Assembly: GCA_905233425.1 (NCBI GenBank)
Contig: CAJOEC010000053.1
Span: 27,681 to 91,680 of the forward strand
Reading direction: 5' to 3'
Origin: an uncultured Prevotella sp.
GTDB lineage: Bacteria > Bacteroidota > Bacteroidia > Bacteroidales > Bacteroidaceae
DNA length: 64,000 bases
Shown here: piece after piece, positions 904 to 17,500 of the stretch
Position numbering within the stretch: position 1 is the stretch's first letter
Layout of the letters: every line of letters starts with the position of its first letter
Notes under the pieces: model-generated
Seen by the model: only the letters and a program-made list of their open reading frames with translations
The model's database searches: none
What the model was told of the DNA's origin: nothing
Position numbers and translations under genes: made by a program

Positions 904-911
904 TAATTTTG
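904..911 (+). promoter_or_regulatory. Candidate -7 box for the sigma-factor operon
   Basis: TAATTTTG matches TAnnTTTG. No TTTG sits at the normal distance upstream, which would fit control by an alternative sigma factor, perhaps the one encoded downstream. Transcription from here would give a leader of about 200 nt. Confidence 0.4.
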
Positions 912-917
912 AAGCGT

Positions 918-1119
918 GATTTTGCAATCACACATACATATTGGCTCTTACATCAGCGAACTTGCACCTCGGAGATAAACGAGCCAAACAAAATCGAACA
1001 TTGGGCGTCGCGCCATAGTGCGCAGACGTTTCTATGGTTCGATTGGGCAGTGCTAGGCCTCGCTGATGCGTAGATTCGTTCTGCGCATTTTCGATATTGA
1101 TGACCTAATGACAATGTAA
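918..1119 (+). ncRNA. Structured leader RNA candidate before the sigma-factor gene
   Basis: No ORF of note lies here, but the sequence folds strongly. CATCAGCGA (951-959) pairs with TCGCTGATG (1060-1068). Enclosed within that stem are a CTCG/CGAG hairpin and a long hairpin. The long hairpin starts with ATCGAAC (993-999) paired to GTTCGAT (1037-1043) and continues as GCGTC/GACG(T) with inner GCGC/GCGC. The result is a closed stem with two arms, more typical of a cis-regulatory or small RNA than of a spacer. I do not recognise a named family. Confidence 0.45.
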
Positions 1120-1686
1120 ATGGACTACGACCTCTACGATGACCAAGCTCTTGTCGATGGCATATTGAACAACGACAGGCGGCTGATAGAGTATTTCTTC
1201 AACAAGAAATGCTCCAAACTATTCGGGTATATCATTATAAACGTCTTTGACAACAACGTTGCCGACATGAAGGAACTGGCAAACGAGCTGTTCCTGTATC
1301 TGGCAAAGGATGACTGGTATAAGGTTCGCCAGTTTCACTTCAGAAGCAGTCTGATGACATGGATCCGTGTCGTTGCCACAAGATTCTTTCAGAAAAAACG
1401 TGAAGAGCTGATGGAAAAATCATCTCCAGTGGCTCTAAGTGATAAAATGTGGCAAGACCAAAGTGCGAGTATCTCCCTTGACAAACGGATTGACATACTT
1501 GCAGCCCTACAAAAGATGCCCAATGCCCGCTACCGTAAGGTCATCGAGGTGTTGGACTTACAGGATGTCCGCCCCGAACTATTAGCAGAAGAAATGAACA
1601 TAACAGTAGATAACTTGTATAACATTCACCGCCGTGCATTGGTGCAGCTTCGCCTCGTAATGGGCAGAAAGGAGGACTGGATATGA
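1120..1686 (+). CDS. ECF-type sigma-70 family RNA polymerase sigma factor
   Basis: This 188-aa protein has the layout of a small two-domain sigma factor. The sigma2-like part is at about residues 10-95, with FRSSLMTWIRVVATRFFQKK resembling region 2.3-2.4. The sigma4 helix-turn-helix is at about 120-180 (LQKMPNARYRKVIEVLDLQD then LAEEMNITVDNLYNIHRRAL). It probably directs RNA polymerase to a private set of promoters, most simply the operon it heads. Its stop overlaps the next ATG by 4 bp (ATGA), so the two are translationally coupled, as sigma/anti-sigma pairs often are. The region 4 match is clear; the target genes are inferred. Confidence 0.82.
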   Translation: MDYDLYDDQALVDGILNNDRRLIEYFFNKKCSKLFGYIIINVFDNNVADMKELANELFLYLAKDDWYKVRQFHFRSSLMTWIRVVATRFFQKKREELMEKSSPVALSDKMWQDQSASISLDKRIDILAALQKMPNARYRKVIEVLDLQDVRPELLAEEMNITVDNLYNIHRRALVQLRLVMGRKEDWI

Positions 1687-2129
1687 AAGACTTCAATGAC
1701 CTTTTGAATAGCGGTATCTCCGACGAGCTGTTGGCTGCCTACATAGACGGAAATACGACGGAAAGTGAGAATCAACTGATAGAAAGTTCCCTTAATGGCG
1801 ACTCTATGTTGTCAGAAGCCTACGAGATAGCCAACGACAGCGTTTCCTTCGGGAGCAATTTTGATTGGGAAATTCACAAAGGCGACTTCGGATTTTGGGA
1901 ATTAGGATTGCCACCAGCAGTGACAGAAGCTGATTTAATGGTACCAGCAGACACAAGCTATGGCAATATAACAAATGAAGGTACAGACTTTAGTCTTAAC
2001 CTTGATACTCTTAACCCTCTGAATGATGGCTTTACGCCATTGGATACTTCTACATCAGATGATTTAATGAATACAGATATTTCAGATGGATTGGATGGTG
2101 TAGATGATTTAGGAGATACATTATTATAA
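1683..2129 (+). CDS. Acidic protein coupled to the sigma factor, possible anti-sigma
   Basis: A 148-aa protein that starts inside the sigma gene's stop. Its first 45 residues (ISDELLAAYIDGNTTESENQ, then LIESSLNGDSMLSEAYEIA) resemble the N-terminal helix region of anti-sigma factors. It has no zinc-binding HxxxCxxC motif and no transmembrane helix, so a classic membrane anti-sigma is unlikely. The rest is very acidic and low in complexity (SDDLMNTDISDGLDGVDDLG). It carries the motif VSFGSNFD, which recurs as ISFGSS in the protein at 7427-8266 of the same operon. The anti-sigma role is inferred from position and the N-terminal similarity. Confidence 0.55.
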   Translation: MKDFNDLLNSGISDELLAAYIDGNTTESENQLIESSLNGDSMLSEAYEIANDSVSFGSNFDWEIHKGDFGFWELGLPPAVTEADLMVPADTSYGNITNEGTDFSLNLDTLNPLNDGFTPLDTSTSDDLMNTDISDGLDGVDDLGDTLL

Positions 2130-2144
2130 AAAAACTCTCTCAAC

Positions 2145-2702
2145 ATGACAAGTAATGCTAACTTAGGAACCTTAGGAACAGGTAGTTACAATATCTATTG
2201 TGAGGATGTCCTGCAGCAGTATGATGATACTTGTGCCATCAAGTCGCAACAATTAATACTGGAATCCAACGGAATAGACATTTCTGAACAGGAATTGCGT
2301 AATGAGGCCATGAGGTACGGATGGTATGCCCCTGGCTATGGCACACCTATGGAGGACGTTGGTAACCTTCTTGAGAATCATGGTATGGAGGTACACCGTT
2401 ACATGGATGCATCTATCTCAGATATTGCCACCGAGTTGTCGAAAGGACACCAAGTCATAGTTGGTGTTGATTCAGGAGAACTTTGGAATGCAGGCATCAA
2501 CGAAACTTTTGAAGATCTCATTTTTGGCGAACAAGCCGACCACGCTTTGATTGTTAGCGGAATTGTCATCGACCCATTCACGGCTGAACAAAACATCATC
2601 TTGACAGATCCAGGCACAGGAGATTTGTGTATTGAGTATCCTATTGAGCAGTTTGAAGATGCTTGGGATGACTCTGGAGATTATGTGATTGTTGCTGTTT
2701 AA
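2145..2702 (+). CDS. C39-like papain-fold cysteine peptidase
   Basis: A 185-aa protein with the residues expected of the C39-like peptidase group. QQYDDTC supplies a candidate oxyanion Gln (24/25) and the nucleophile Cys30. ADHALIV gives His133, and ILTDPGTG gives Asp155. There is no signal peptide and no ABC transporter fusion, so it probably acts in the cytoplasm. Members of this fold can be proteases, transglutaminases or bacteriocin leader peptidases; the sequence does not decide between these. It begins 15 bp after the preceding gene and is part of the sigma-led operon. Cutting an operon protein such as one with the SFGS motif is an untested possibility. Confidence 0.68.
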   Translation: MTSNANLGTLGTGSYNIYCEDVLQQYDDTCAIKSQQLILESNGIDISEQELRNEAMRYGWYAPGYGTPMEDVGNLLENHGMEVHRYMDASISDIATELSKGHQVIVGVDSGELWNAGINETFEDLIFGEQADHALIVSGIVIDPFTAEQNIILTDPGTGDLCIEYPIEQFEDAWDDSGDYVIVAV

Positions 2703-2784
2703 AATAACTATGGTAGAGATTGAATCAGAGTCAAAACTTATTATAAATTTCAAATAAATCATTAATTTTAAAACTTTTACAATT

Positions 2785-3057
2785 ATGGAACCACTTTCAA
2801 TTCTAGCTTTAGCACTTTATGGAGCATATCAGGCTTCCCAAAGAAAGAAAAACTCAGGTAGTAGCCTTGGTTCGTCCACTCCTTACACGCCTCCGAAGAA
2901 GACAAAATCTGCTTCTCAGCCAGAAATAAAGAAAAAAACTGATACTCCTATGTGTCAACCCAAAAATATGCTTAGTGATAAAAAGAAAAAATCTGATACT
3001 CCCATGTGTCAGCCCAAAAATAAACTTAGTGATAACAACAAAAATAAAGCAGAATGA
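2785..3057 (+). CDS. Small basic repeat protein of unknown function
   Basis: A 90-aa protein with a hydrophobic N-terminus (PLSILALALYGAYQ) that could be a membrane or packing helix, then a lysine-rich tail. The tail holds two near-identical copies of KKK(T/S)DTPMCQPKN(M/K)LSD, each with one cysteine. The repetition is also visible in the DNA, so the duplication is recent. It is followed after 3 bp by the next gene, so it belongs to the operon. I do not recognise a family. Paired cysteines could bind metal or form disulfides, but nothing in the sequence proves it. Confidence 0.6.
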   Translation: MEPLSILALALYGAYQASQRKKNSGSSLGSSTPYTPPKKTKSASQPEIKKKTDTPMCQPKNMLSDKKKKSDTPMCQPKNKLSDNNKNKAE

Positions 3058-3060
3058 ATT

Positions 3061-4710
3061 ATGTCTATTATTGTAGCAGGATTATTGGGTGCTGCAAAAA
3101 TTGCAGCAGGAATAATAGGAGCCAGAGCTGTTGGCAAAGGCATTAGTGCTATTGGAGAAAGAATCACTCCATACAACAAAAGTCGTAGTTATAAGCAAAT
3201 TGAACAACAATCCAATTCGGCAAAAGAAATTGAATTGATGAGAGAGGCATCTAATGAAAAGATGCAAAGGGAAAAGATCATTGCTGACAGAGAAAACATC
3301 ATTCTCAATCAAATGCTTAATCGCCAAAATGGAATGATTCAAGCCGAACAGAATGCATATCATTCTCTCCGTCATTCACTCATACAGGATGCAATTAGAA
3401 ACTTTCCTCTCAATATATCGCCTTTGGTGTTGCTGGAAAATAACGGAATTGATGTTCAGTTCCTTCTTCATGGCCCTGAAGTGAATGGCGAGGAACCAGA
3501 AATTACAAAAAGACGAAGGGAGTTTCATGAAGCCCTAAACGGAGGCAAGAAATATCAAGATTCTAAGTCTTTTATAGAGACTTTATCACATCCCAAACCG
3601 CTAAATGTCTTTATAACTCCGATGCATATTGATACACGTGTTGGGGGAAAGGATATCATTGCAGCCCAGGTCTATGACTCCGTTTATTCTTCATTAGAGT
3701 CTATTTTTGTAAATGAATACAGTCGTAATGGTGAGCGTCCCATTACATTTTATGCCACTGCATGGAATAGAAATGCAAAGGGCGGATTACACGCGGCAGA
3801 AGAATTATATTACTTCTTAAAAGAAATGCCTACGATTGTGATTGAACCAAGATTTGACGGGAAAACAATCAAACTAATGTTTTCGTGTTGGAAAATTGGT
3901 TATGACAGCAGTATACATTCAAGGCAGGAATTGGAAATGCCGTTGGACATAAATTCGATGTTAGCCATTGCAGCTTATGAGCGTTCCAAAAAGGCATTGG
4001 AATCTTTCAATAATATTGAATGCGGTAACAAGGTACTAAATGATCAAAAAACTATATATGAACACAACATAAGCATTTTTGAACAGCTCAATCTTGGTAA
4101 TAGAATCAGAAAACGTCTCGATGAGATTTGTGAGTTTGGATATTCATCCGAATTGGAGGAATTGGGAGATTATTCCAAGTTGTTATATACGAATCAGAAC
4201 GATATTTTTGGAATAGCAGATACCATTAGTGCAATTGCAGGCATGATGATATGTGCACTGGCAGATACCCACCACCTGTTAGCCAATGATATCGCTCCAC
4301 AATTTCCTCGTATCTATCAAAAATATTTTGGGGACTATCTTAAAGATTCTGAGTTGCGAAAAACTTTCAGTAAGATGTATGAAAGAACATATTATAGACT
4401 CAGTCGAGAGTTCCCCGATGCAGAACCTCGCAGGATAATGGAAAAGGAGAATGTTAAGAAACTCCTTGGAACTACCACAGTTGGCGAGTCTTTAGCTTCA
4501 CAGGATGTTTTGTTCTCGTTAAGAGAAAAGTGTGTACAGCTTGGAGCAGACAAGAACTTGTGTTACAAATGGGCAACAGAAAGACTAATAGATTTTTACA
4601 TTGAGAATATCGATGATGACGCTAAATTTCGACAAAGCATTATTCCATTTATGACTGAACAACAGAAGAAAAAATTGAGCAAAATATTAATGAATAGAAA
4701 ATTATTATGA
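3061..4710 (+). CDS. Large operon protein of unknown function with glycine-rich amphipathic N-terminus
   Basis: A 549-aa protein I cannot place. The first 35 residues (IIVAGLLGAAKIAAGIIGAR...) are rich in Gly and Ala with spaced hydrophobics, like a membrane-inserting or helix-packing segment. Next come a charged, probably coiled-coil stretch (residues about 45-105) and a mixed alpha/beta body. Its 3' end overlaps the Hsp70-like gene by 4 bp, so the two are probably made together and may interact. Low GC and A/T-ending codons match the rest of the island and differ from the core genome. A client or adaptor of the Hsp70-like ATPase is a reasonable guess only. Confidence 0.6.
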   Translation: MSIIVAGLLGAAKIAAGIIGARAVGKGISAIGERITPYNKSRSYKQIEQQSNSAKEIELMREASNEKMQREKIIADRENIILNQMLNRQNGMIQAEQNAYHSLRHSLIQDAIRNFPLNISPLVLLENNGIDVQFLLHGPEVNGEEPEITKRRREFHEALNGGKKYQDSKSFIETLSHPKPLNVFITPMHIDTRVGGKDIIAAQVYDSVYSSLESIFVNEYSRNGERPITFYATAWNRNAKGGLHAAEELYYFLKEMPTIVIEPRFDGKTIKLMFSCWKIGYDSSIHSRQELEMPLDINSMLAIAAYERSKKALESFNNIECGNKVLNDQKTIYEHNISIFEQLNLGNRIRKRLDEICEFGYSSELEELGDYSKLLYTNQNDIFGIADTISAIAGMMICALADTHHLLANDIAPQFPRIYQKYFGDYLKDSELRKTFSKMYERTYYRLSREFPDAEPRRIMEKENVKKLLGTTTVGESLASQDVLFSLREKCVQLGADKNLCYKWATERLIDFYIENIDDDAKFRQSIIPFMTEQQKKKLSKILMNRKLL

Positions 4711-6629
4711 TGTACGTAACTTTAGATTTTGGTTCGGCAAACTCAGGAGCACTGTTAAATCCTATAGGAAAAGGGTATAATCGCAGTGACTTAGTACACC
4801 TTCATGAACAAAGAGGATTTACTAAACAACCTACTGTCTTTTGGATTAAAAAGGAACTATTAGAAAAAGATTTAGATACTGCTTCTGATATATTAAGAAT
4901 ATATTCTTGTGTTTTTTTTGAATCTGAATATGCAGAAAATCCAAATTTTATCTGGTGTCATACACAAACCCGAGATAAAATAGCGATAATTGCCAAAGAC
5001 AACAACTGGGTCTGTTTTCGCTATCCTAAAATGGTACTATACAAAAAAGATACAGATCTAAGAATTAAAGGTAGTGATGGCAGGTTTTATGACTTGTCTC
5101 ATATATTGACACTTTTCTTCTTTGTAATAAAGAAAGAATGTTTGCAGAGAATGAGAAATGGGGGCTGGATAGAAGATGAAATAAGTTGGGGGGTTACCGT
5201 TCCTGGGATGGCAATATGGCAAGATAAAGCACGAGAGACAATGCGAAAATGTGCACAAAAAGTTTTTGGAACAAACTTAACATTGTATTCTGAGCCAGAG
5301 TGTGCGTTAATTGGCATCAACATAGGAAAGGCTAATTTTGAACATTTTGTAGATGGTCATTACATATTAGTTACTGATCTTGGTGGAGGTACTGCGGATA
5401 TTTCGGTGCTTCAAGTCATTCAAAACAAAGAAACTAAGAGAATTAAGTTCAAAGAAATAAAGGCAACTTCCAAGGATAAAGATGCCACAATAAGTATTCA
5501 TGCTGGCGGTAATGATATTGATGACTACTTTCACATATTTTTTTGCAATACGATAGCGAAAGGGGTGAACCTTCCAGATGATCCAACTCAGCTGCTATGG
5601 ACAGACTTTCAAAACGATTGTCCTGATGGTGCGATGGACTTTGATTGGGAATGGCATAATAGAATACAGTATGAGCCAGGCGAAATTTGGAACGAAGCTT
5701 CTATTCATTTCAATCCTGGTAGAAAATATATAGCATGGTTAGATGAACATTACCCAAAAGTCGCTGACATAGCATTGTCTAAATATGGAGATTTTACTCT
5801 TGACAAAGGCGAATTATTGGATGAGGTGTTTAAACAAGTTCATGATAAGATTCTTAATGAATTAACAGAAATCTTAGCAAATTTGAAACATAACAATATC
5901 GAATTAGATCAAGTTCTATTTGCTGGTGGCCTTAGTTTGGATTTCCGCCTTAGCAAATCTATAAAGGAACTCGTTCAATCAAATTTCAAATATGCCCAGT
6001 TCTCAGAAACCAGCAAAGGAGCTGTTATTGGAGCTGTTCAGACAGGTGGTAACCATGTGGCGGTGACTGATGGATTAGTTGAAAGGTTGGCGCGAAAGAC
6101 ATATTATACAGATTTTGTTTTGGAATATGATGGAAACGACGAAGATTTCAAAAAGAGGTTATTTGGTCAACAACGGAAATATTACAAGAAATTGGATGAC
6201 AATATTTGGCTAACTGATGACATACTTGAAAAAGCATTCCAAGAGCAGGCTTTAATGATGCGAAATTGTATCAATTACGCTTCCCAATGGATCTCATATA
6301 TAGTTCCGTTTTGCTTGAGATATTCTTCGGCATCGCAAAAACAACACATTAAAATTTTTCCTGTAAATAGAGGTAATCAAACAAGGACATCGGTTAGTGT
6401 TTATTCTTCTGACAAGAATCTCATGCTGTTTCCGGGAGATTCTGAAGACCTTTTTGAGGAAGGAACATTTGACTATGATTTTGGTTATAATTGGGAGGAA
6501 GCAGAGTTAGTGTTTGACCCTATTTCTTCTAACCCTGTAGAAGGTTCTGCATACTTTATTTTGAATGATGCAAATGGCAGAGAATTACACAAATTTCTAA
6601 TTAAAAACGTTACTAAAAAAGGATTATAA
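4707..6629 (+). CDS. Hsp70-like actin-fold ATPase
   Basis: A 640-aa protein with the three nucleotide-binding signatures of the Hsp70/actin superfamily. Phosphate-1 is VTLDFGSANSG near residue 5, phosphate-2 is VTDLGGGTADISV near 222, and the adenosine motif is VLFAGGLSLDFRL near 403. The C-terminal 200 residues do not look like the DnaK substrate-binding domain, so this is a diverged member, not the housekeeping chaperone. An alternative ATG lies 3 bp downstream of the chosen start. It overlaps the preceding gene by 4 bp and is followed after 2 bp by a coiled-coil protein, an arrangement reminiscent of DnaK with GrpE. It may be an ATP-driven remodelling factor for the operon's other proteins; the client is unknown. 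Confidence 0.8.
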   Translation: MMYVTLDFGSANSGALLNPIGKGYNRSDLVHLHEQRGFTKQPTVFWIKKELLEKDLDTASDILRIYSCVFFESEYAENPNFIWCHTQTRDKIAIIAKDNNWVCFRYPKMVLYKKDTDLRIKGSDGRFYDLSHILTLFFFVIKKECLQRMRNGGWIEDEISWGVTVPGMAIWQDKARETMRKCAQKVFGTNLTLYSEPECALIGINIGKANFEHFVDGHYILVTDLGGGTADISVLQVIQNKETKRIKFKEIKATSKDKDATISIHAGGNDIDDYFHIFFCNTIAKGVNLPDDPTQLLWTDFQNDCPDGAMDFDWEWHNRIQYEPGEIWNEASIHFNPGRKYIAWLDEHYPKVADIALSKYGDFTLDKGELLDEVFKQVHDKILNELTEILANLKHNNIELDQVLFAGGLSLDFRLSKSIKELVQSNFKYAQFSETSKGAVIGAVQTGGNHVAVTDGLVERLARKTYYTDFVLEYDGNDEDFKKRLFGQQRKYYKKLDDNIWLTDDILEKAFQEQALMMRNCINYASQWISYIVPFCLRYSSASQKQHIKIFPVNRGNQTRTSVSVYSSDKNLMLFPGDSEDLFEEGTFDYDFGYNWEEAELVFDPISSNPVEGSAYFILNDANGRELHKFLIKNVTKKGL

Positions 6630-6631
6630 TT

Positions 6632-7417
6632 ATGAGTGAACTTGATAATTTACTGTTCTTGGTAGAGAAAAGAATTACAGACAGCAATAGTGGTATTATT
6701 ACAGATATTCAACAAAAGATACCTATGGGATATATAGAACAAAAAATTAGAGAGTGGCTTTTGCCAGAAATAAAAAGAATCAATGAAACTATTGAATCTC
6801 AATCAAGAAGGATTCAAGAGTTGGAGCGTAGTAACTCACAATTAAATGATTTACTTAAAGAAGAAAAGGAAAAGAATGAAAAGATAAAAAGTAGGTTGGA
6901 TGAACTCACATCTAACGCTAATAGTGAGAGAGTTCGTTTAGAAAAAAATTATAGTCAAGGGGTTACGGAATTTCAAAAGCTTAATCGAAAGATGACAGAT
7001 TATATACGCAAATTCGATGAAGTGGGCTGCTCATATATATTAGAAATGATTACGGAATATTTTTACATTCATTCTCAAAAATTGAAAGATGAAATATTAG
7101 CAGAATTTGAAAAGGAGAAAGTTGAATTACCTGTTATGAATATATTAGATGATATAGACAAATTCGACAAAACGTATAGACCTAATATTGATAGATTCTT
7201 AGGACTCATCAATTCAAGTTTAGACAAATGTTTAATTTTTCCCAAAGAACGCTATTTCATATCCCGAGATATGGAGTCAGTAACAGGACGTAACATCAAG
7301 GATGGAAGTCCTGTATTTATCATAGGATTGGGCTATGATTTCCCAGTAATCGATATTCCCTCTCAAAAGCCTTCTGTATTTCCAAAAGATGCTGATATTG
7401 TGAAGAATGACAATTAG
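6632..7417 (+). CDS. Coiled-coil protein, possible nucleotide-exchange partner of the Hsp70-like ATPase
   Basis: A 261-aa protein with a long predicted coiled coil (about residues 40-125, heptad-like ERSNSQLNDLLKEEKEKNEK) followed by a globular part ending in GSPVFIIGLGYDFPVIDIPS. A long helix followed by a small beta-rich domain is also the shape of GrpE, which releases ADP from DnaK, and the gene sits directly behind an Hsp70-like gene. I see no clear GrpE family motif, so this is an analogy from layout, not an assignment. It is co-transcribed with its neighbours, with gaps of 2 and 9 bp. Confidence 0.5.
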   Translation: MSELDNLLFLVEKRITDSNSGIITDIQQKIPMGYIEQKIREWLLPEIKRINETIESQSRRIQELERSNSQLNDLLKEEKEKNEKIKSRLDELTSNANSERVRLEKNYSQGVTEFQKLNRKMTDYIRKFDEVGCSYILEMITEYFYIHSQKLKDEILAEFEKEKVELPVMNILDDIDKFDKTYRPNIDRFLGLINSSLDKCLIFPKERYFISRDMESVTGRNIKDGSPVFIIGLGYDFPVIDIPSQKPSVFPKDADIVKNDN

Positions 7418-7426
7418 TATATAATT

Positions 7427-8266
7427 ATGTTAGATAGCATATATGAGTTAGTACAACATGGTGGGGCGGATGTCCTTAGAGAGACTTTTAATAATGTCTT
7501 GGATTCCTCTTTAGCTGTAGAGGATTATGGAATGATGAGCGATGCTTTGACTGACCATACATTCTCTGTAGACAGCTTATCCACCTCAGATTCTATGTGC
7601 TACTCATTTCAGTATGATAACACTTCAATAGAAGTCCCTCTTGATAATAATATTTCAGCTATATCCTTTGGAAGTAGTATAGATGATTTGTATGACCCTC
7701 AAATTCAATCTGCGCATGACGATGTAATGTACCATCGTCATGCCGCAGACGATGCTCGCACTTATGATGATTTAATTCATCATCGGCACGAAGAAATTTC
7801 AGCAATAGAGAGTGAAGAATATTGGATTGACTCAAAATATGACGCAGAAAATGAGCACATGAAAGTTGAGGCAGAGCGTGAGTATCAGGAATTTCTAAAC
7901 AAACAGTATAGCATTTCCCATGTCGAAAACCTCTATAATGATGTCTATGGTAGAAGTAATGAAATTAGTTTTGGAAGTTCTGATGATCATCTATTAGCTG
8001 ATAATGGAAGTTCCTCCATCTCATTTAAAGGCTGGCAAGAAGATGCTCGTAATGTCGCTGCCTCAGAACTTCAAAGCAAATTGAACACCTTCCACATATA
8101 TTACCCAGGTACTTTGTCATCAGATTCTACTTTTGGGGGATGGGATCGATATACAGGAAAGAAAATACATGATGCCATTCAAAATGCCAGGAACTCAGGA
8201 GCTATTTCAGACACCATATACAAAGAGCTGATGAGGGATTTGAAGAAAGCATGTTACTTTCAATGA
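7427..8266 (+). CDS. SFGS-repeat protein of unknown function, last gene of the sigma-led operon
   Basis: A 279-aa, His- and Asp-rich protein with no recognised domain. It contains AISFGSSIDDLYD (about 79-91), EISFGSSDDHLLAD (about 181) and a weaker SISFKGW soon after. The protein at 1683-2129 carries VSFGSNFD, so a short motif is shared by the first and last structural genes of the operon. A middle stretch has paired histidines (MYHRHAADD, LIHHRHEE). The C-terminus (about 195-279) looks globular. The two clear motif copies flank a charged helical stretch, so they could be docking or cleavage sites for another operon member; this is inference. A terminator hairpin follows. Confidence 0.55.
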   Translation: MLDSIYELVQHGGADVLRETFNNVLDSSLAVEDYGMMSDALTDHTFSVDSLSTSDSMCYSFQYDNTSIEVPLDNNISAISFGSSIDDLYDPQIQSAHDDVMYHRHAADDARTYDDLIHHRHEEISAIESEEYWIDSKYDAENEHMKVEAEREYQEFLNKQYSISHVENLYNDVYGRSNEISFGSSDDHLLADNGSSSISFKGWQEDARNVAASELQSKLNTFHIYYPGTLSSDSTFGGWDRYTGKKIHDAIQNARNSGAISDTIYKELMRDLKKACYFQ

Positions 8267-8297
8267 TTTCAAATTGTCTGATAGATTCAATTACTTA

Positions 8298-8345
8298 TGT
8301 GGCTCTATACAGTAAACAACACTCTGTATGGAGCCATCAGTTTTA
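8298..8345 (+). terminator. Intrinsic terminator, copy 1
   Basis: TGGCTCTATACAG pairs with CTGTATGGAGCCA, with one bulge, followed by TTTT. It closes the sigma-led operon. A near-identical hairpin recurs at 9457-9505, in front of the intact copy of the gene that is truncated here. Confidence 0.65.
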
Positions 8346-8380
8346 TCAACATTTGTAATGACATAATCAAAGGAAACAAT

Positions 8381-8509
8381 ATGAGTCACAAAAAGTATTA
8401 CGGCTATAAGAAGCCACAAGAGCGGATAAAAAGCCACACGAGCGGTACTCCATCAAGTTCCGTGACGATGCGGAGAATGGTAACGTTGAAGTCGGTACAC
8501 CATGCATAA
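8381..8509 (+). pseudogene. Truncated duplicate of the gene at 9537
   Basis: It starts MSHKKYYGYKKPQER and matches the first codons of the 9537 gene (MTHKKYYGYKKPQER) and its leader at DNA level. It then carries an 18-bp tandem duplication (AAGCCACA.GAGCG twice). This does not by itself break the frame cleanly, but the homology stops after about 40 codons. It is a leftover of a duplication that also copied the terminator hairpin. Confidence 0.75.
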
Positions 8510-8647
8510 TCATGCTATAAACAGGAACAGACTGAACACATTCGCAAGGAAGGCAGAAATAATGGAGGAAATGTTTGGCGGTTTCAAAATAATATCATAA
8601 TTTTTCGGTCGAAAATCTGTGGTAATCCACAAATAAAAGCCTCTAAA

Positions 8648-9402
8648 ATGATAATACCTCGTGAGAAATATCTTCAGCAACTGATAGCAGCGGAAGGAAA
8701 CGGAATGGTCAAGATTGTCACTGGCATACGGCGTTCCGGCAAGTCGTTCCTGCTGATGACACTGTTCCACCGGCACCTCATAGAGCAAGGGGTGCAAGAG
8801 AACCAGATCATCGAAATCTCTTTGGACAACCGTAAAAACAAGCGGCTTCGTGACCCCGATTCATTATTGGACTACATTGACAGCAGAGCGTAGGCCGACG
8901 GGCTGATTCACTATGTCTGCAAGATGCCTTTTTGATAGAAGAGGCATTGAGATATGATGTGAAAGGAAGAAAATATATTGGCACCGAAACAAAATACTAT
9001 TTTGCTGACATGGGTATACGTGCCGCCATCCTGAACCTAAGACAACAAGAGGAAACACATATCATGGAAAACATCATCTACAATGAACTGCGTATGCGTG
9101 GCTATCGTGTTGATGTGGGTATGGTGGAAACATGGACTACCAATGCCGAGAACAAGACTATGCGATTACCGCTGGAGATTGATTTTGTAGTAAATAAAGG
9201 GGCAGAGCGTATCTATATACAATCGGCATACCGTATGCCGAGCGAGGAGAAAGAAAAACAGGAGAAACGCTCTTTGCTGAGCACTAACGACAATTTCCGC
9301 AAAATTATCATCACCTACGACGACATAAAACAAAAAACGGACGAGCAGGGCATTGTCACCATTAGTTTGTTGGATTTCCTTCTAAACCCTCATAGCATAT
9401 AA
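8648..9402 (+). pseudogene. Broken AAA/DUF4143-type ATPase
   Basis: The 5' piece (8648-8893) encodes MIIPREKYLQQLIAAEGNG then TGIRRSGKSFLL, the P-loop start of the archaeal-type ATPase family with a DUF4143 C-terminus. The 3' piece (8932-9402) gives YIGTETKYYFADMGIRAAIL then NIIYNELRMRGYRVDVG, a typical DUF4143 end. Together they cover only about 240 codons of the usual near 400, so the middle, including Walker B and the sensor region, is deleted and the frame is broken near 8894-8935. It lies between two copies of the same terminator and gene start, so it arrived with, or was enclosed by, a duplication. A second tiny relic of this family is at 11311. Confidence 0.82.
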
Positions 9403-9456
9403 CTTGAAAGCATTCTTTCTGAACAGACGATGGATGCTGATAGATTCTAACGCTTA

Positions 9457-9505
9457 TGTGGCTCTATACAGGAAACAGCACTCTGTATGGGGCCATAAGT
9501 TTTTT
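9457..9505 (+). terminator. Intrinsic terminator, copy 2
   Basis: TGGCTCTATACAG pairs with CTGTATGGGGCCA, followed by six T. It duplicates the hairpin at 8298-8345 and shares the flanking sequence up to the next start codon. Confidence 0.7.
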
Positions 9506-9536
9506 CAACAATCACAAATAATCAAAGGAGAACGGT

Positions 9537-9914
9537 ATGACTCACAAAAAGTATTACGGCTATAAGAAGCCACAAGAACGGTATTCCATCAAGTTCCGCG
9601 ACGATGCAGCAAATAGTAGAGTCGGTACAATGTTTGCCATCGGGTACCAAGATGAGAAGTTTTATATGGTGAAGCTGAACTGGGGCGCAGAAGAGGATTG
9701 GGAGCGTTCCAGAGACGGGGAGGTGGAGATGACGTGGAGCTTCGACGAGGAGAACACGAAGAAAATCATGCTCCGCACGGGAACACACAACGCCAAGGAT
9801 ATGATGCAAGCCATGTATGAGCGTTTCGGTAAGTACAAGGCTTTTGCTCACTTCCATATAGAGAAGTGGTGTAAGGAGAAAGAAATCGAATACAGCTATT
9901 ACGTGCATTATTAA
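9537..9914 (+). CDS. Conserved-looking hypothetical protein
   Basis: A 125-aa protein starting MTHKKYYGYKKPQERYSIKF, after a purine-rich AAAGGAGAA site. The middle (MFAIGYQDEKFYMVKLNWG) looks like a beta-sheet domain and the end is helical and charged. I recognise no family. It lies 45 bp before the PP2C phosphatase gene on the same strand, so they are probably co-transcribed. A truncated copy of its 5' end is at 8381. A role as regulator or substrate of the phosphatase is possible but unsupported. Confidence 0.6.
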   Translation: MTHKKYYGYKKPQERYSIKFRDDAANSRVGTMFAIGYQDEKFYMVKLNWGAEEDWERSRDGEVEMTWSFDEENTKKIMLRTGTHNAKDMMQAMYERFGKYKAFAHFHIEKWCKEKEIEYSYYVHY

Positions 9915-9959: not shown

Positions 9960-10634
9960 ATGAGACTGAAATATACGACGTGTTGCATGACTGGCGGAAA
10001 GCAGAGAAACGAGGATGCTATCTTTGCCCGTGTCTATGAAGAAAGCAACAAAGCCCTGTTCGTGGTCTGCGACGGCATGAGTGGCCTTCATATAGGCGAC
10101 GAAGCGAGTAAGGCAATTGTTGAGGTGTTTGAATCCGTATGGAACCAGCACCATGCAGAATGGGACGACAATCGCTTACTGAATGAGGCTGTTGAACAAG
10201 GAAAGACTGCTATTGATGGCCTGTCAAGATACGACGTGGGAACGACCATTGTTTTGGCTGCAGTGGAGGATGAAACGATGCTGATAGGGCATCTTGGTGA
10301 CAGCAGGGCCTATTACATTCGCCCTGGTAGCGGAATTGTCTATCAGACCGAAGACCATATCACCATAGGGCAGGAGGGCTGGCCGTATGTGTCGAAAGGG
10401 TTCTTCAACTTCCGGAAGATTGACGCTCCGACTGTCGGGAGATTCCAACTTCAGAAAGGCGACCGCATCTTGCTTTGCTCTGATGGGGTGTACGGCTGCT
10501 ACCGTGGCAATGCTTTTGTGGATTTGCTGAGTGAGAAAATGGAAATCGACACGATGATGTCCAACATAGTGGGCTATTGCGATGAGTATGCCACAGACAA
10601 CTATTCGGCCATACTCATTGAAGTTGAAAAGTAA
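9960..10634 (+). CDS. PP2C-family Ser/Thr protein phosphatase
   Basis: A 224-aa protein with the full set of PP2C metal-site motifs: RNEDA, VVCDGMSG, GTTIVLA, IGHLGDSRAYY, LLCSDGVYG and DNYSAI. It would remove phosphate from Ser/Thr residues using two Mg/Mn ions. There is no membrane segment, so it should be cytoplasmic. A decayed Ser/Thr kinase lies 2 kb downstream, so the island once had a kinase/phosphatase pair. The putative targets, such as the sigma, anti-sigma or Hsp70-like proteins, are inferred from neighbourhood only. Confidence 0.9.
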   Translation: MRLKYTTCCMTGGKQRNEDAIFARVYEESNKALFVVCDGMSGLHIGDEASKAIVEVFESVWNQHHAEWDDNRLLNEAVEQGKTAIDGLSRYDVGTTIVLAAVEDETMLIGHLGDSRAYYIRPGSGIVYQTEDHITIGQEGWPYVSKGFFNFRKIDAPTVGRFQLQKGDRILLCSDGVYGCYRGNAFVDLLSEKMEIDTMMSNIVGYCDEYATDNYSAILIEVEK

Positions 10635-10707: not shown

Positions 10708-11073
10708 ATGGCACAAACGACACTTATCAATTATTCGGTTCTATGGGACAGAATCAGTGAATGGGCAAGAAAAGCCGGAAGGGTGAGCACACGGCCACTC
10801 CTCCTTCTTTTCTATGTGATGAAGAGTAAGGATATACCTTGGTCTGACAAGATGCTGGTACTATCGGCTATCAGCTATCTGGTGTTTCCCATTGACATTC
10901 TCGATGCTAAGCGTCTGCCTATCATAGGATGGTTCGACGAAATAGCATCTATTTCCGTGGCATACCAGAAGGTGAGCAAGCACATCACGCCGGAAATAGA
11001 AGCCAAAGTGGATGCCATCCTTGACAGGTGGTTTCCTGAACATGCTTCATACGTGGAGTTGCCGACGCCTTGA
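10708..11073 (+). CDS. DUF1232 (YkvA-like) protein
   Basis: A 121-aa protein with the DUF1232 core DKMLVLSAISYLVFPIDILD followed by LPIIGWFDEIASI. In this family the core forms a short hydrophobic hairpin, usually membrane-associated. The family's biochemical role is not known to me. It follows the PP2C gene by 73 bp on the same strand. DUF1232 proteins occur near stress and envelope genes in many bacteria; nothing here narrows the function further. Confidence 0.8.
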   Translation: MAQTTLINYSVLWDRISEWARKAGRVSTRPLLLLFYVMKSKDIPWSDKMLVLSAISYLVFPIDILDAKRLPIIGWFDEIASISVAYQKVSKHITPEIEAKVDAILDRWFPEHASYVELPTP

Positions 11074-11570: not shown

Positions 11571-12368
11571 ATGAATAAGAGAAAGTTACTGTGTGTAGCA
11601 GCATTAGCCATGCTGACACTTGCATCTTGCAATAGGGAAAAAGGGATGGATTATGGCGTTGAATGGAACTTTGACCCTGGTACGACTGTGTATGAGTTGA
11701 ACAACGGTTGTACTGCGAGAGACTCCATCGGCGACGGGCCAATGAACGAGGAGATGACCGTTCACGATAAAGATGGGAGGGTGCTTGCCCTTGCTGGGTG
11801 TGCCTCTGAGTGGGGCTGCATGGTGGTGGTACGTTTCTTGTACGATGAGGATGGAAGTGTGAGGGGGCTGATACGCTCAACAGCAGATAGTGAGGATGAT
11901 GACGAACCAGATCAAAATGAGGTATTGCGCCATGTATTTGAAAAAAGTGAAGACGATAAGGAGTTCGAGACATTCCTCTTCCAGAAAGAGAACGGACTTA
12001 TCAGAAAGGTGTATAGCCCTGCTGCAAAGGATTCCATCAAGGCACCTGAGTGGTGTCACATAGAATATGCCGTGAAAGAATCAGGGATATTCTGGGTGAA
12101 TGATATTCAAGGCGGTGAGATTATCCCCCAGTTCTGTGTTGTACCAAATAAGAAAGAAAGAGAATATGCGATAGACGTATATAACGGCTACCAGTTACAG
12201 GTGCGTAAGGGCTATAGCAAAGGGAGTCTTCATAGCATCACCGTATTTGACAGCGATGGCCATGTCTCAGGCTATTTCCCCATGGATACGGGCGAATACA
12301 ACTTGGATGCCGTGAACGGATTCCTGTTTGACACATGGGGAGGTAACTATGCTAACATAGAAAACTAA
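11571..12368 (+). CDS. Putative lipoprotein of unknown function
   Basis: A 265-aa protein with a short positive start (MNKRK), a hydrophobic stretch and the lipobox LASC (Cys near residue 20), so it should be lipid-anchored. The mature part repeats a theme of short beta units (VHDKDGRVLALAG, VFDSDGHVSGYF), similar to the repeat modules of cell-surface proteins that track an internal sequence of strand and turn. No enzyme motif is visible. It has its own promoter and no same-strand partner within 45 bp. It sits between the ATPase remnants and the kinase pseudogene. Confidence 0.65.
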   Translation: MNKRKLLCVAALAMLTLASCNREKGMDYGVEWNFDPGTTVYELNNGCTARDSIGDGPMNEEMTVHDKDGRVLALAGCASEWGCMVVVRFLYDEDGSVRGLIRSTADSEDDDEPDQNEVLRHVFEKSEDDKEFETFLFQKENGLIRKVYSPAAKDSIKAPEWCHIEYAVKESGIFWVNDIQGGEIIPQFCVVPNKKEREYAIDVYNGYQLQVRKGYSKGSLHSITVFDSDGHVSGYFPMDTGEYNLDAVNGFLFDTWGGNYANIEN

Positions 12369-12477
12369 GGTTTTTATAGAAGCACGTCAGGGATTGTTGG
12401 TTTATACGGCTTAAAATAGACAGACCACCCAAATTTGTCATGTCAGGGGCAGGAAAGCCCACCTCTACCCTCTTTTT

Positions 12478-13249
12478 GGCCTCAAAAAGGTCAAAAATTT
12501 GATTGAGGATCATTATGATGGAGTATCATTGTATGACCTAATGCGAGGGAAAGTGTGCGGAGTAGATGATCAACCCATCGGATTTGCGATTAAGATGTAT
12601 GAGATGTTTCAAAATCGTAAGATTGATTTTGCTAAGATGGTCGCCGAAGAAATCCTGAAAGAGATATAAACACTATACAACGTAATGATATGGCTTTGAG
12701 ATTTATTTGAACTTCCAGAAAATATAATATTTACGGTAAATGGAGAAATCAAAATAAAAATTAGAGGTAGCATACTAAGTATGTGTGAGTTGCCTGGTGC
12801 AATAGTTCCAGAGGTGTTTGATAGATTGTTTCCTTTTGAATACGCACCATCAGCAGATATCGGTTTATATAAAAATAGGTAAAGTCGAAAACTTTGAGAT
12901 TTACGTCGTAGGAATTCTTCTCTACTGCATATTGACAGGCCATCTACCCTATAAGGGCAGCACATCTTTGGAAGATTGTCATTTGGCACATGAGCCATAC
13001 ATTGACCCTCGCGATGACAATTATATAGAAAGACCTTTTGTTAGAAGACCTTCACGTGGGTATGACAAATTGTTACTGACTGATATTCAAGACATACATC
13101 TTAGAAAAGTAATAGAAAAAGCGACGAGAGAAAATCCATCTAAGCGTTTCCAATCAGCTATAGAGTTTATTAATGAGTTAGAAACTCCTAAAGAGGAACC
13201 TTTTGATGGCTGCTATGGGTCAGAAATTTCCTCTGTACAAAGATTCTAG
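12478..13249 (+). pseudogene. Decayed Ser/Thr protein kinase
   Basis: Kinase subdomains can be read across three frames. 12478-12669 gives NLIEDHYDGVSLYDLMRGK, the hinge region, then an ILK end. About 12713-12883 gives PENIIFTVNGEIKI and EYAPSADIG, matching the catalytic loop and activation segment. 12885-13249 gives IYVVGILLYCILTGHLPYKG and KATRENPSKRF, the C-lobe with its final Arg. The ATP-binding N-lobe (Gly loop, Lys) and the HRD segment are missing and stops interrupt it, so it is dead. It was probably the partner of the PP2C phosphatase at 9960. Its frame runs straight into the truncated nuoN, which marks a recombination junction. Confidence 0.8.
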
Positions 13250-14467
13250 CTACTTACTCATTCTCTCTACGTTGCTCGGCATGTACGTCATGATGTCCTC
13301 TGGCCACTTCCTCCTGTTCTTCCTCGGACTGGAGATGGCCTCAGTGCCCATGGCCTGCCTTGTCGCCTTCGACAAGTACAAGCAGCAGAGTGCCGAGGCT
13401 GCCGCCAAGTACATCCTCACCGCCACGTTCTCTTCGGGCGTGATGCTCTACGGCATCTCCATGCTCTACGGCGTCTGCGGTACCCTCTACTTTGATGTCA
13501 TGGCTCTCGTTATCGCTGCCAAGGGTAGTGTGTTTTCCGGACAGGGCACGATGCTCATCATGGGCATGGTGTTCTTCTTCAGTGGTCTTGGCTTCAAGAT
13601 TTCGCTCGTTCCCTTCCACTTCTGGACGGCCGACACCTACCAGGGTGCCCCCACTCCCGTCACCGGTTATCTGAGCGTCGTCTCCAAGGGAGCCGCCACG
13701 CTCACCCTGGCCATAATCCTGATGAAGGTCTTCGCCTCGATGGTCGACTACTGGGAGCCGCTACTTTGGATTGTCATCATGCTCACCATCACCGTAGGTA
13801 ACCTCTTCGCCATCCGTCAGAAAGAGTTGAAGCGCTTCATGGCCTTCTCCTCTATCTCCCAGGCCGGTTACATCATGCTCGCCGTCGTTGGCAACAGCAC
13901 CGTGGGCCTCACAGCCCTCACCTTCTACGTCCTCGTCTACGTAGCCGCCAACCTCGCCGTCTTCACGGTCATCACCGCAGTAGAGCATAGACCCACCCCC
14001 CAGCCCCTCCCTGTGAGGGAGGGGAGTGGTTACACTCAAGGTTGTATGGATGGGCAGAAGGTATCTACTCCCCTCCCTCACAGGGAGGGGCAAGGGGGTG
14101 GGTCTACCCAGATGTCCGCCTATAACGGCCTCTACCAGACCAACCCGAAGCTGGCCCTGCTGATGACCCTGGCCCTCTTCTCTCTGGCAGGCATCTCATG
14201 GCCGCTGTCGGAGGTCACGAGGCTGCCCCATTCTGGCCCTACTTCGTGGTCTTCATCGCCCTTATCAACACGGTAGTCTCCCTCTACTACTACCTCTTGA
14301 TTGTCAAGGCCATGTACATCACCAAGGAGGACAATCCTCTGCCCTTCTTCGCCAACGGCCGCGCCATCAACTGGAGCCTTGCCCTCTGCACCGCCGGCAT
14401 CCTCCTCTTCGGTATCTGCTCCTGCATCTACGAGTGGATCGACCGCGCCGCCGTCGCCTCGATGTAA
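13214..14467 (+). pseudogene. nuoN: NADH-quinone oxidoreductase subunit N, broken
   Basis: The protein reads [20 protein letters not shown] then [32 protein letters not shown] and [20 protein letters not shown]. This is the proton-pumping, multi-helix NuoN subunit of complex I. The normal first 100 or so residues are absent, replaced by the kinase remnant. A 117-bp palindrome is inserted in frame at 13989. Near 14193 the expected PPFAGFF-like segment after LAGI is missing, and the frame shifts to the ORF at 14198 ([19 protein letters not shown]). With three lesions it is unlikely to work; an assembly error could explain the shift but not the 5' loss. No other nuo gene is in the window. Confidence 0.85.
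13989..14105. repeat. GC-rich palindromic element A, inside nuoN
   Basis: Two 39-bp arms (13989-14027 and 14067-14105) are inverted copies with about two mismatches. Each arm carries an inner palindrome (CCCTCCCTGTGAGGGAGGG). The loop is 39 bp. The total of 117 bp is exactly 39 codons, so the reading frame is kept, adding [12 protein letters not shown] and [14 protein letters not shown]. Confidence 0.85.
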
Positions 14468-14488
14468 CCCACGTTTCACACGTCATGA

Positions 14489-14522
14489 TAAAAGCCGGAA
14501 GCACACCACTTCCGGCTTTAAT
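14489..14522. terminator. Bidirectional terminator
   Basis: AAAGCCGGAAG and CTTCCGGCTTT form an 11-bp stem with a 7-base loop between the convergent nuoN remnant and hsdR. A and T runs lie on both sides. Confidence 0.8.
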
Positions 14523-14561
14523 CATATTTGGTCACTTTGCCCGATAATCGGTAAATAACAG

Positions 14562-17500
14562 TCAACTGTCTAAATTCTCGTTCCCGTTTCTATATTCAGC
14601 AGCCATTCCATACTGACGCAATGGCAAATCTTGTGCTTTTGGTCTTGCTGCTTCCCTAACCATTGGAGTATAAGCCTCAATGATACGCTTCCACTCCTTA
14701 GGACTCATGTCAGAATACCGTTCGCCGAACTGCTCCATCGCTTCACGTTGAAGTTCATAATCGGTTGTGTCAGGGTATAGTTGCAAGCGGCTGAAGATGA
14801 GATTACGAACTTCCTGGTCATCCTCTACACGTACCAACTTGAAATATAGATAATCCAGGTTTTCTACCATTCTTATCAACAGCCTCTGGAAATTAGATTT
14901 GAATCCCTCGTTCTGCTGATACTCTTTATATAGAGACATGTCGCCTTTGCGTTTCTTCCTGACTATGCCATCGATAATTTTAGCATAGATTTCATCAACA
15001 GCCTGTCGATCTGGGTTTCCTACTATCATCGTCTTATAGTCCTCATCCTCAGCAACGGCCTTGGCCATACTCATCATTTTGGCCTTCTGATCATCTGGGG
15101 TCGCATCCCATCCCTTGAACCAACGCTCGTTGAATTCCTTTAAGATTATCTCCAGTCTGTCTTTAGGTTCATCAACATTTCCTGGCCCTATCATTACAGG
15201 CTTATTGGGGTCAAGTACTGTTTCTCCTGAATCCAGTCCGATGGTCTCATTCAGCGCCGTTCGTCTGAGTCCGTAGGTGTTCAGGTCCACGGAGTCCAAC
15301 AGATCCTTGATATCATCAGCATTCTTTCCTGGTACTATCAGTTGTGGTATGAGGTAGCGCAGATACCAGAACAGCTTTTCCCAGTCTGCCACTTCATAAT
15401 CCATGATAGCTGCCACCCTTGAATACACCTTCACAAACTGCTTACACTTCATCTTGAAGTCAGCCTTTCCGTTCTCAGGCCATTCTATCTCCTGATTGAA
15501 GCGTAATGCCGCTGTATCAACAATGGGTGCCCACTGGTCTGCCTCTGCTCCGTGAATATACATTTCAATAAACTCATTCACCTCATCCATATCGAACACG
15601 CCAAAAGTCAGCAATGTTGTCTTCAACTGGTGCAGGATATTGACATCTGTCGCCTCCGAGAGCGTTGTTGCCGTATAGAACGGGTCGAATGAGTCCTTGA
15701 TATCATCCTTCGTATTATAGAAGTCCAGGATAAAGAGGTCTTCGCTGAGTTTACCTAAGTCTGGGGCGCTTCTGTTCAGACGCGACAAAGCCTGCACAGC
15801 CAGCACCCCTGCCAGTGGCTTATCCACATACATAGCGCAGAGCTTAGGCTGGTCAAAACCTGTCAGATACTTATTGGCGACTACCAATATACGGTAATCG
15901 TCCGAGTCGAAATTCTCTGCCGTCTTGTTCTCTGGGAACCCGTTCAGTTCTGCCTCCGTATATTCCCTGCCGTTCAGTGTCTTCGAACCCGAGAAGGCAA
16001 TCAATATCTTATAGGGCATCTTGTTCTTCACCAACAGTTCCTGCAGGGCTTGATAATACAAGATGGCACATTCAATATCCTTAGTGACTACCATCGCCTT
16101 TGCCTTTCCCTTCAACTTATGATTGCGGAATATCTTGGCATCGAAGTGGTTAAGCATCACCTCTGCCTTAGCCTCAATGGTCTTAGGGTTTCGCTCCACA
16201 TAGCTTCTCAGGATTCTTTGAGCCTTTTTGTTATTATATTCAGGGTCTTCCTCAATACTCTTTGTCAGCTCATAGTAACTACGATAGGTAGTATAGTTGG
16301 TCAGCACGTCCAAAATGAATCCCTCCTCTATGGCCTGTTTCATCGAATACAAGTGGAAAGGATGGAACTTGCCTTCTGCATCCTCTGAGCCGAAACGTTC
16401 TAGAGTCTCTTTCTTCGGAGTGGCAGTAAAGGCGAAATACGAGCTGTTTGAACTCATCTTTCTGTCCTTCATCAGTTTCTCCAGCAATTCGTCTGTGTCA
16501 CCTCCGTTTTGGTCTGCATCCTTCTGTACCGTGGCGTTCAGCTTGTCTGCAGCAATACCGCTTTGACTGCTATGAGCCTCGTCTATGATGATGGCGAAGT
16601 TATGGTCGCTCACGTCGCTGATGGCATCACAGATGAAAGGGAACTTCTGAATCGTAGTGATGATGATACGCTTGTTCTGCTCAATAGCATCCTTCAGGTC
16701 TTTCGACGTATCTGCATGCGCCACAATCTTGTCGCTCTGTCCGAAAGCCTTGATGTTGTCAGTTATCTGTTTATCCAGCAGCCTACGGTCTGTCACCACT
16801 ATCACAGAATTGAACAGAGGTGCATCCAATGACTTTGCTCTTACTGCCGTCATCGACTCCGGGCAGGTCTTTATCAGCTTATAGGCCAGCCACGTCAGCG
16901 AGTTCGACTTTCCCGAACCTGCTGAGTGCTGAATCAGGTAGGTCTTTCCAACACCCACCTTTGCCACGTTCTGTTCCAACTTCGTCACCACGTCCAACTG
17001 GTGGTAACGGGGGAATATCAGTTTCTTGGCGTTCTTCATGATGTGCGGCACCTTCTTCTGCGTCTTGGCCTCGTCGTAGTCGAACAACACATAGTTCATG
17101 ATGATGTCGGCCACGGTGTCCTTCTGCAATACCTGTTCCCACAGATAGCTGGTCTTATAGCCATCCATATTCACAGGGTTGCCGGCTCCCTGACCTTCTG
17201 GCAGTCCTTTGTTGAAGGGCATGAAGAATGTCTTATCCAGATTCAGCTTAGTGGTAAAGAACACCTCATCCTTATCCAATGTGAAGTGAGCTAAGCAGCG
17301 GCCATACTGCAACAGCGTTTCCTTTGGATTTCTTTCCGTACTCTTATATTGCTTCTGTCCATCGTATCGGGCTGTCTGATGAGTCCAGGGATTCTTCAGT
17401 TCAAAGGTGAACAGGGGGATGCCATTCACATACAGCACCATATCTAATTCCAAGCCCGGATTCATCTGCGAGAACGTCTGCTGGCGTGTCAACGAGAATT

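What the first reader, a model, noticed from the sequence alone, without database searches (positions are those of the whole stretch)
1120..8266. Undescribed sigma / C39 peptidase / Hsp70-like operon
Eight tightly spaced, AT-rich genes combine an ECF sigma factor, an anti-sigma-like protein, a C39-like peptidase, an actin-fold ATPase, a GrpE-shaped coiled-coil protein and several unknowns. This mix does not match a defence, secretion or stress system known to me. It is best viewed as a self-transcribing, ATP-driven assembly or proteolysis system.
Basis: partly seen in the sequence, partly recalled or inferred. Interest (0 to 1): 0.85.

Follow-up and report, generated by a model that had tools for sequence, protein, structure and literature searches.

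The report
Sigma/C39-protease/Hsp70-like conflict operon
An AT-rich gene cluster in a gut-type Bacteroidota genome links a transcription switch (sigma factor, anti-sigma and a papain-like protease) to an Hsp70-like ATPase; the same switch recurs across this phylum in front of swappable immune-type genes, so this is probably a new, protease-controlled variant of bacterial self-defence machinery.

Summary
The eight genes are real, tightly packed, co-directional and foreign in composition. ECF sigma, anti-sigma-like protein, C39 protease and Hsp70-family ATPase are confirmed; the GrpE identity is not. The operon is neither isolated nor a random mix. A profile of its C39 domain finds 52 C39 genes in relatives. 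In 37 an ECF sigma gene lies upstream, usually overlapping an anti-sigma/C39 fusion gene that the window carries as two ORFs. The Cys/His/Asp triad is kept in nearly all. Cargo behind the module is exchangeable and immune-like: dynamin GTPases, Hsp70, DO-GTPases, TIR, STAND, AAA, RyR, FGE-sulfatase; genes elsewhere in the same genomes show no such enrichment. The window's C39 falls in a well-supported clade tied to dynamin/Hsp70 NTPases. C39+Hsp70+dynamin sets recur on cyanobacterial and actinobacterial plasmids, there also with a sigma factor. The unknown 549-aa protein recurs in three other genomes, always behind sigma/anti-sigma; Hsp70-like, coiled-coil and 279-aa genes are singletons. Best reading: a protease-gated sigma switch driving an NTPase effector assembly, a new variant of NTP-dependent conflict systems. 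Defence itself is untested.

The parts
904..911 (+). candidate housekeeping promoter -7 box TAATTTTG (TAnnTTTG), about 209 nt before the sigma gene
   Evidence: read; motif enriched before relatives' sigma genes, 18/39 vs 3.7 expected within 150 nt; in the window it lies outside that 150-nt range, so weak
951..1085 (+). strongly folding leader of unknown role upstream of the sigma gene
   Evidence: MFE -55.8 kcal/mol, z -4.4; single copy in the genome; no Rfam match
1120..1686 (+). g1: ECF sigma factor (188 aa)
   Evidence: TIGR02937 4.3e-8; 63% identical to the sigma of the G652 operon
1683..2129 (+). g2: soluble anti-sigma-like protein (148 aa), zinc ligands absent, acidic tail
   Evidence: overlaps g1 by 4 nt; homologous to the N-terminus of anti-sigma/C39 fusion proteins; no hydrophobic segment
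2145..2702 (+). g3: C39/papain-like cysteine protease (185 aa), Q25 C30 H133 D155 intact; same frame as g2, parted by TAA 2127-2129
   Evidence: PF13529 1.4e-6; C/H/D in 50/51/49 of 52 relatives
2785..3057 (+). g4: 90-aa polar protein with a near-perfect 18-aa tandem repeat holding PMCQPKN
   Evidence: 54-nt tandem repeat 2923-3030, 87%; no relatives found
3061..4710 (+). g5: 549-aa protein, hydrophobic N-terminal helix, coiled coil, conserved central PTxxIxPxF...WxxG region; candidate membrane-anchored adaptor
   Evidence: relatives in three other genomes, all directly downstream of sigma/anti-sigma(-C39); max KD 2.08 at residues 3-21; AF2 pLDDT only 48
4707..6629 (+). g6: Hsp70-family ATPase (640 aa): NBD with all four nucleotide motifs, C-terminal domain without recognisable family
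   Evidence: PF00012 3.4e-6; Foldseek to DnaK 3e-12; motifs
6632..7417 (+). g7: coiled-coil protein (261 aa)
   Evidence: only generic coiled-coil hits; no GrpE match
7427..8266 (+). g8: 279-aa acidic protein with three ISFGS/ISFKG motifs; no homologue found
   Evidence: no family hits; motif list; no relatives
8297..8345 (+). terminator-like hairpin closing the operon
   Evidence: 14-bp stem followed by TCAGTTTT, -22.2 kcal/mol, z -5.2
9537..9914 (+). KKYYGYKKP gene (125 aa), conserved 3' bookend
   Evidence: 82.7% identical to the gene behind the variable cargo in G652 (L062 7021-7404)

Best explanation
This is an exchangeable, probably laterally acquired conflict (defence-type) operon. SHOWN by sequence: an ECF sigma, an anti-sigma-like protein and a papain-like C39 protease form a conserved regulatory module; behind it lies swappable cargo, here g5 plus an Hsp70-family ATPase, a coiled-coil protein and an acidic protein, in the slot that relatives fill with dynamin GTPases. 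INFERRED: the anti-sigma part holds the sigma inactive in the cytosol; a cue of infection or membrane damage activates the C39 protease, which cleaves the anti-sigma link (or another operon protein); the freed sigma boosts the operon; g5 (membrane-anchored coiled coil) and the Hsp70-like ATPase with g7 then assemble in an ATP-dependent way at the membrane and limit the invader or the infected cell.
For: C39 profile: 39/398 genus genomes, plus 6 of 167 other genomes of the order and 8 of 132 others drawn from the phylum; ECF sigma upstream of C39 in 37 of the 52 C39 genes collected, mostly overlapping; triad conserved. Cargo enrichment: of 113 proteins Dynamin_N 20, HSP70 7, TIR 7, RyR 5, AAA 5, DO-GTPase 3, nSTAND1 2, FGE-sulfatase 2; no such family has 2 or more members among 91 control proteins from the same genomes. 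PADLOC LeoBC 17, LeoA 16, IetA, ThsB. Tree: window C39 in an NTPase-cargo clade (97/94), RyR-fused C39s in another. Cross-phylum: Anabaena plasmid Hsp70-DO-GTPase-C39-dynamin x2; Rhodococcus plasmids GTPase-Hsp70-C39-sigma and C39-sigma...dynamin-GTPase-Hsp70 x2. Cassette swap: only the sigma/anti-sigma start (70% DNA identity), 72 nt of C39 and the KKYYGYKKP gene (83%) align with G652, cargo does not. AT-rich cargo.
Against: No functional data; g6-g7-g8 as a set were found nowhere else; the window has no dynamin, GTPase, TIR or other recognised effector; zinc ligands of the anti-sigma are missing and it is split from C39; AF2 models of g5 and g6 are weak (pLDDT 48, 52); no ECF promoter motif was shown inside the operon; some C39/NTPase operons lack a sigma gene; several cargo loci are near-copies and not independent.
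Confidence: 0.5

Rival explanations
1. Envelope or membrane-stress repair: the sigma/anti-sigma/C39 switch senses membrane damage and induces membrane-remodelling NTPases (dynamins elsewhere, Hsp70 plus g5 here), like mycobacterial iniBAC, with no specific role against invaders.
For: Dynamin-like IniA mediates membrane fission and is induced by drug treatment (PMC6715688, abstract seen); g5 has a membrane-type N-terminal helix; ECF sigmas commonly serve envelope stress (general knowledge).
Against: The sister C39 branch carries TIR, STAND and RyR, which are immune rather than repair parts; patchy distribution and cargo swapping fit conflict better.
Confidence: 0.22
2. Cytosolic proteostasis machine: an Hsp70-type chaperone with a nucleotide-exchange partner and a protease, induced by its own sigma factor.
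For: Hsp70-family NBD next to a protease and a coiled-coil gene.
Against: No GrpE match, no J-domain protein in the Pfam results, no recognisable substrate-binding domain; relatives pair the C39 with dynamins and GTPases.
Confidence: 0.1
3. Peptide-processing cassette: C39 cuts GG-type leaders of small operon proteins (g4, g8), giving a modified toxin or signal peptide.
For: G683 has C39 followed by a Cys-rich 105-aa protein with a GG motif and a radical SAM/SPASM maturase (L103); g8 begins MLDSIYELVQHGG; peptide systems accompany other conflict systems (PMC7159879).
Against: No ABC exporter or maturase in the window; C39 here is soluble and tied to anti-sigma; the g8 leader resemblance is by eye.
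Confidence: 0.1
4. A chance run: the sigma/anti-sigma/C39 genes regulate other targets and the AT-rich cargo is an unrelated insertion behind them.
For: g6-g8 are singletons; the GC step lies between g1 and the rest.
Against: g5 follows sigma/anti-sigma in all four genomes that have it; Hsp70 with C39 recurs in three phyla.
Confidence: 0.08

Closest known systems
GTPase-centric conflict systems, GAP1-N2 type with HSP70+GrpE theme (Kaur et al. 2020, PMC7159879)
   Same: HSP70 linked to NTPases and swappable effectors; relatives here carry DO-GTPases and FGE-sulfatase/TIR parts as in those systems
   Different: The paper's main text names no sigma factor, no C39 and no dynamin; the window has no GTPase, GAP1 or GrpE
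EACC2-caspase systems with an ECF sigma and DUF1822 (Kaur et al. 2021, PMC8195603)
   Same: A protease and an ECF sigma coupled to variable domains; autoproteolytic activation proposed
   Different: Caspase rather than C39; there the protease is not described as fused to an anti-sigma domain
Eleos (LeoA/LeoBC dynamin-like defence)
   Same: Cargo of the NTPase-type relatives matches LeoA/LeoBC models
   Different: No dynamin in the window; Eleos has no sigma/C39 module (own knowledge)
ECF sigma with soluble anti-sigma factor (reviewed in PMC8999054)
   Same: Soluble anti-sigma encoded right behind the sigma
   Different: The review lists conformational change, partner switch and a mechanosensing complex for soluble anti-sigmas; a papain-like protease fused to the anti-sigma did not turn up in the passages searched
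Peptidase C39 of bacteriocin exporters
   Same: Same protease superfamily and catalytic residues
   Different: No ABC transporter; soluble; fused to anti-sigma and often RyR in relatives

Membership tests
C39-coupled NTPase clade (defined here) | C39 domain groups with dynamin/Hsp70-linked C39s | tested here: met
   window in a 16-row clade, support 97/94; 12 of the 16 rows carry dynamin/Hsp70 cargo (the window among them) and none is RyR-fused
C39-coupled NTPase clade (defined here) | dynamin-like GTPase in the operon | tested here: not met
   no dynamin or GTPase match in the window genes; an Hsp70-family ATPase instead
ECF sigma / class I anti-sigma pair | ECF sigma with regions 2 and 4 | tested here: met
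   TIGR02937 4.3e-8 over 30-178, sub-cut-off; 63% identity to another operon sigma
ECF sigma / class I anti-sigma pair | HxxxCxxC zinc anti-sigma domain | tested here: not met
   ligands absent in g2; zf-HC2 E 0.16. Kept in relative L163 (HLDSCSLC, zf-HC2 0.008) and seen in L167 (HIAVCQEC). Zinc is not universal in the class
Peptidase C39 superfamily | Cys-His-Asp triad with preceding Gln | tested here: met
   Q25, C30, H133, D155
Hsp70 family | NBD with phosphate 1, connect 1, phosphate 2, adenosine motifs | tested here: met
   motifs found; DnaK/Hsp70 best structural hits
Hsp70 family | substrate-binding domain | tested here: inconclusive
   no HSP70 coverage beyond residue 286 in Pfam; C-terminal model pLDDT mostly below 50
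GrpE | match to PF01025 | tested here: not met
   no match in gene 7 at E<=10
GAP1-N2 GTPase-centric conflict system | TRAFAC/DO-GTPase plus GAP1 component | tested here: not met
   none in the window; DO-GTPases in relatives L097 and L187
Known anti-phage system | match to a PADLOC model | tested here: not met
   only weak hits in the window's operon genes, mostly coiled-coil; relatives' cargo matches
Known anti-phage system | protection against phage | not testable with these tools
   needs experiment

The most novel reading that the evidence does not exclude
A phylum-wide class of bacterial immune switches in which a cytosolic papain-like protease, fused or coupled to an anti-sigma domain (and in a sister branch to a RyR domain, a candidate sensor), converts an intracellular cue into release of an ECF sigma that turns on interchangeable effector operons; the window is a version whose effector is a new Hsp70-type ATPase assembly in place of dynamins.
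Probability: 0.35. Interest if true: 0.85.

Novelty: new variant of a known kind. Interest (0 to 1): 0.66.

Why it matters
Known prokaryotic immune systems mostly act after translation; a protease-gated sigma module would give them an inducible transcription arm, comparable in logic to proteolytic activation of NF-kB. The same module sits in front of many unknown genes in Bacteroidota, so it is a handle for finding new defence genes by 'guilt by regulation', and the window shows that an Hsp70-family ATPase can take the dynamin's place in such a set.

Tried and rejected
Direct search for relatives of g6 found mainly ordinary DnaK; g5 had no relatives in 392 other genomes of the order, plasmids or viral contigs and was only found in the genus. 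A g5 profile was too divergent for a viral scan. C39 profile in viral contigs: none; phages: none for g3 or g6. AF2 of g5: pLDDT 48, no Foldseek hit below 0.001, not interpreted. g7 as GrpE: rejected. g6 C-terminus against the Streptomyces Hsp70-like protein: no similarity, so an HSPA12-like C-terminus could not be shown. Literature searches for C39 with anti-sigma and ECF: none. g8 GG-leader idea kept only as a rival. Upstream structured RNA: no Rfam match.
Full report
OBSERVATION. The window is G000:C53:27681-91680 of a 4.9-Mb assembly. Eight ORFs lie head to tail on the + strand between 1120 and 8266 with gaps of -4, 15, 82, 3, -4, 2 and 9 nt; GC is 0.31-0.45, against 0.46-0.49 for the next four genes, and only the sigma gene has host-like third-position GC. 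A 14-bp hairpin with a T-rich tail at 8297-8345 closes the unit. The upstream side is ordinary chromosome, including a complex-I gene set.

GENE IDENTITIES. g1 is an ECF sigma (TIGR02937 4.3e-8, below cut-off). g2 has only a trace of zf-HC2 but is homologous to the N-terminus of relatives' anti-sigma/C39 fusion proteins; better zf-HC2 matches appear in L122 and L163, and zinc ligands are kept in L163 and L167. g3 is a C39-like cysteine protease with Gln, Cys, His and Asp in place. g2 and g3 share a frame and are separated by one TAA and 15 nt, where relatives have one fused gene. g6 has the four Hsp70 nucleotide motifs, and its model resembles DnaK above all. g7 is a coiled coil without GrpE match. 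g4 and g8 have no relatives found; g8 carries three ISFGS/ISFKG motifs, one of which is echoed as SAISFTG in the 115-aa gene of G652.

CONSERVATION. Searching the genus with g5 alone gave three distant relatives, G652, G729 and G853. All three lie directly behind sigma and anti-sigma genes, two of them behind a sigma plus an anti-sigma/C39 fusion and directly before dynamin-like GTPases; a g5 profile then found only these four genomes among 299. A C39 profile from three operons found relatives in 39/398 genus genomes, 6 of 167 other genomes of the order and 8 of 132 others drawn from the phylum, several of the last weak and in very long ORFs. Of 52 C39 genes collected, 37 have an ECF sigma gene upstream, usually overlapping by 4-38 nt. 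The catalytic Cys/His/Asp are present in 50/51/49 of the 52, and some of the exceptions are truncated sequences. All but one of the sigma-linked proteins lack a clear transmembrane segment; L162 has one.

CARGO. Genes directly behind the C39 gene differ from genome to genome. Pfam over 113 of them gives Dynamin_N 20, HSP70 7, TIR_2 7, RyR 5, AAA 5, DO-GTPase 3, nSTAND1 2, FGE-sulfatase 2; PADLOC gives LeoBC 17, LeoA 16, IetA 5, ThsB 3. Among 91 control proteins from random stretches of the same genomes no such family reaches two members (only the first 25 families are listed, so single weak hits could be hidden, and some cargo loci are near-copies). A C39 tree separates two branches: one in which 27 proteins end in a RyR domain, with TIR, STAND and AAA cargo, and one with dynamin/Hsp70 cargo; the window belongs to the second (97/94), and its nearest rows come from other families of the phylum rather than from its own genus, which suggests transfer.

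BEYOND THE PHYLUM. An Anabaena plasmid holds Hsp70, four further genes including a DO-GTPase, C39 and two dynamins in a row. Rhodococcus plasmids hold GTPase-Hsp70-hypothetical-C39-hypothetical-sigma-PDDEXK nuclease, and C39-hypothetical-sigma some 4 kb from dynamin-GTPase-Hsp70-Hsp70.

CASSETTE STRUCTURE. Against G652 only the start (1107-1929, 70% DNA identity), 72 nt of the C39 gene and the downstream KKYYGYKKP gene (83%) align; everything between is replaced or diverged beyond DNA alignment. In the window the 5' end of that last gene and the hairpin before it are duplicated around a broken DUF4143 ATPase, a scar of recombination.

MECHANISM (inferred). The overlap of sigma and anti-sigma genes, the absence of a membrane anchor and the fusion to a protease with a conserved triad suggest that proteolysis, not membrane signalling, frees the sigma. 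The upstream regions often carry the housekeeping TAnnTTTG box (18/39 against 3.7), so a basal level from the main sigma plus feedback by the ECF sigma is likelier than pure self-transcription. g5 stands between the C39 and the NTPase in G652, G729 and here, has a hydrophobic N-terminal helix and coiled coil, and is the best candidate for the link between membrane and NTPase. g6 occupies the dynamin's slot. What the NTPase assembly does is not shown; defence is the best guess from the company the module keeps.

KNOWN OR NEW. The closest published ideas are the NTP-dependent conflict systems of Kaur et al. 2020 (PMC7159879) and the ECF-linked caspase systems of 2021 (PMC8195603). Neither describes a C39/anti-sigma module in the text searched, and full-text searches found no paper holding ECF sigma, anti-sigma and C39 peptidase together; subscription papers and most preprints were not searchable, so novelty is provisional.

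Noticed in passing
L103 (G683:C22) 12172-15828, - strand: C39 gene of the same clade followed by a Cys-rich 105-aa protein with a GG motif, a radical SAM/SPASM maturase related to Cys-rich-peptide maturase CcpM, and a second radical SAM: a possible peptide-making version of the system.
   Followed up: partly
window 951-1085: Strongly folding leader (z -4.4) upstream of the sigma gene, single copy, no Rfam family.
   Followed up: partly
window 8278-9618: Hairpin and 5' end of the KKYYGYKKP gene duplicated (84-92%) around a broken ATPase with a DUF4143 C-terminal part.
   Followed up: partly
L122, L125, L127, L132 and about 20 other loci: Anti-sigma/C39 proteins ending in a RyR domain, with stand-alone RyR genes nearby and TIR/STAND/AAA/DUF4062 cargo: a second branch that merits its own study.
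   Followed up: partly
genome G000: No GrpE over the family cut-off in the assembly (93.7% complete), while 12 of 14 control genomes pass; probably a gap in the assembly.
   Followed up: no
window 9960-10634 and 10708-11073: PP2C phosphatase and a DUF1232-like gene downstream; homologues of both occur near other C39 loci (L096, L101, L110, L119; L114).
   Followed up: no
L190 (Streptomyces goshikiensis plasmid) 6488-9125: Hsp70-like 631-aa protein closest to g6 in the nucleotide-binding domain among the plasmid hits, followed by a 243-aa gene of no known family.
   Followed up: partly
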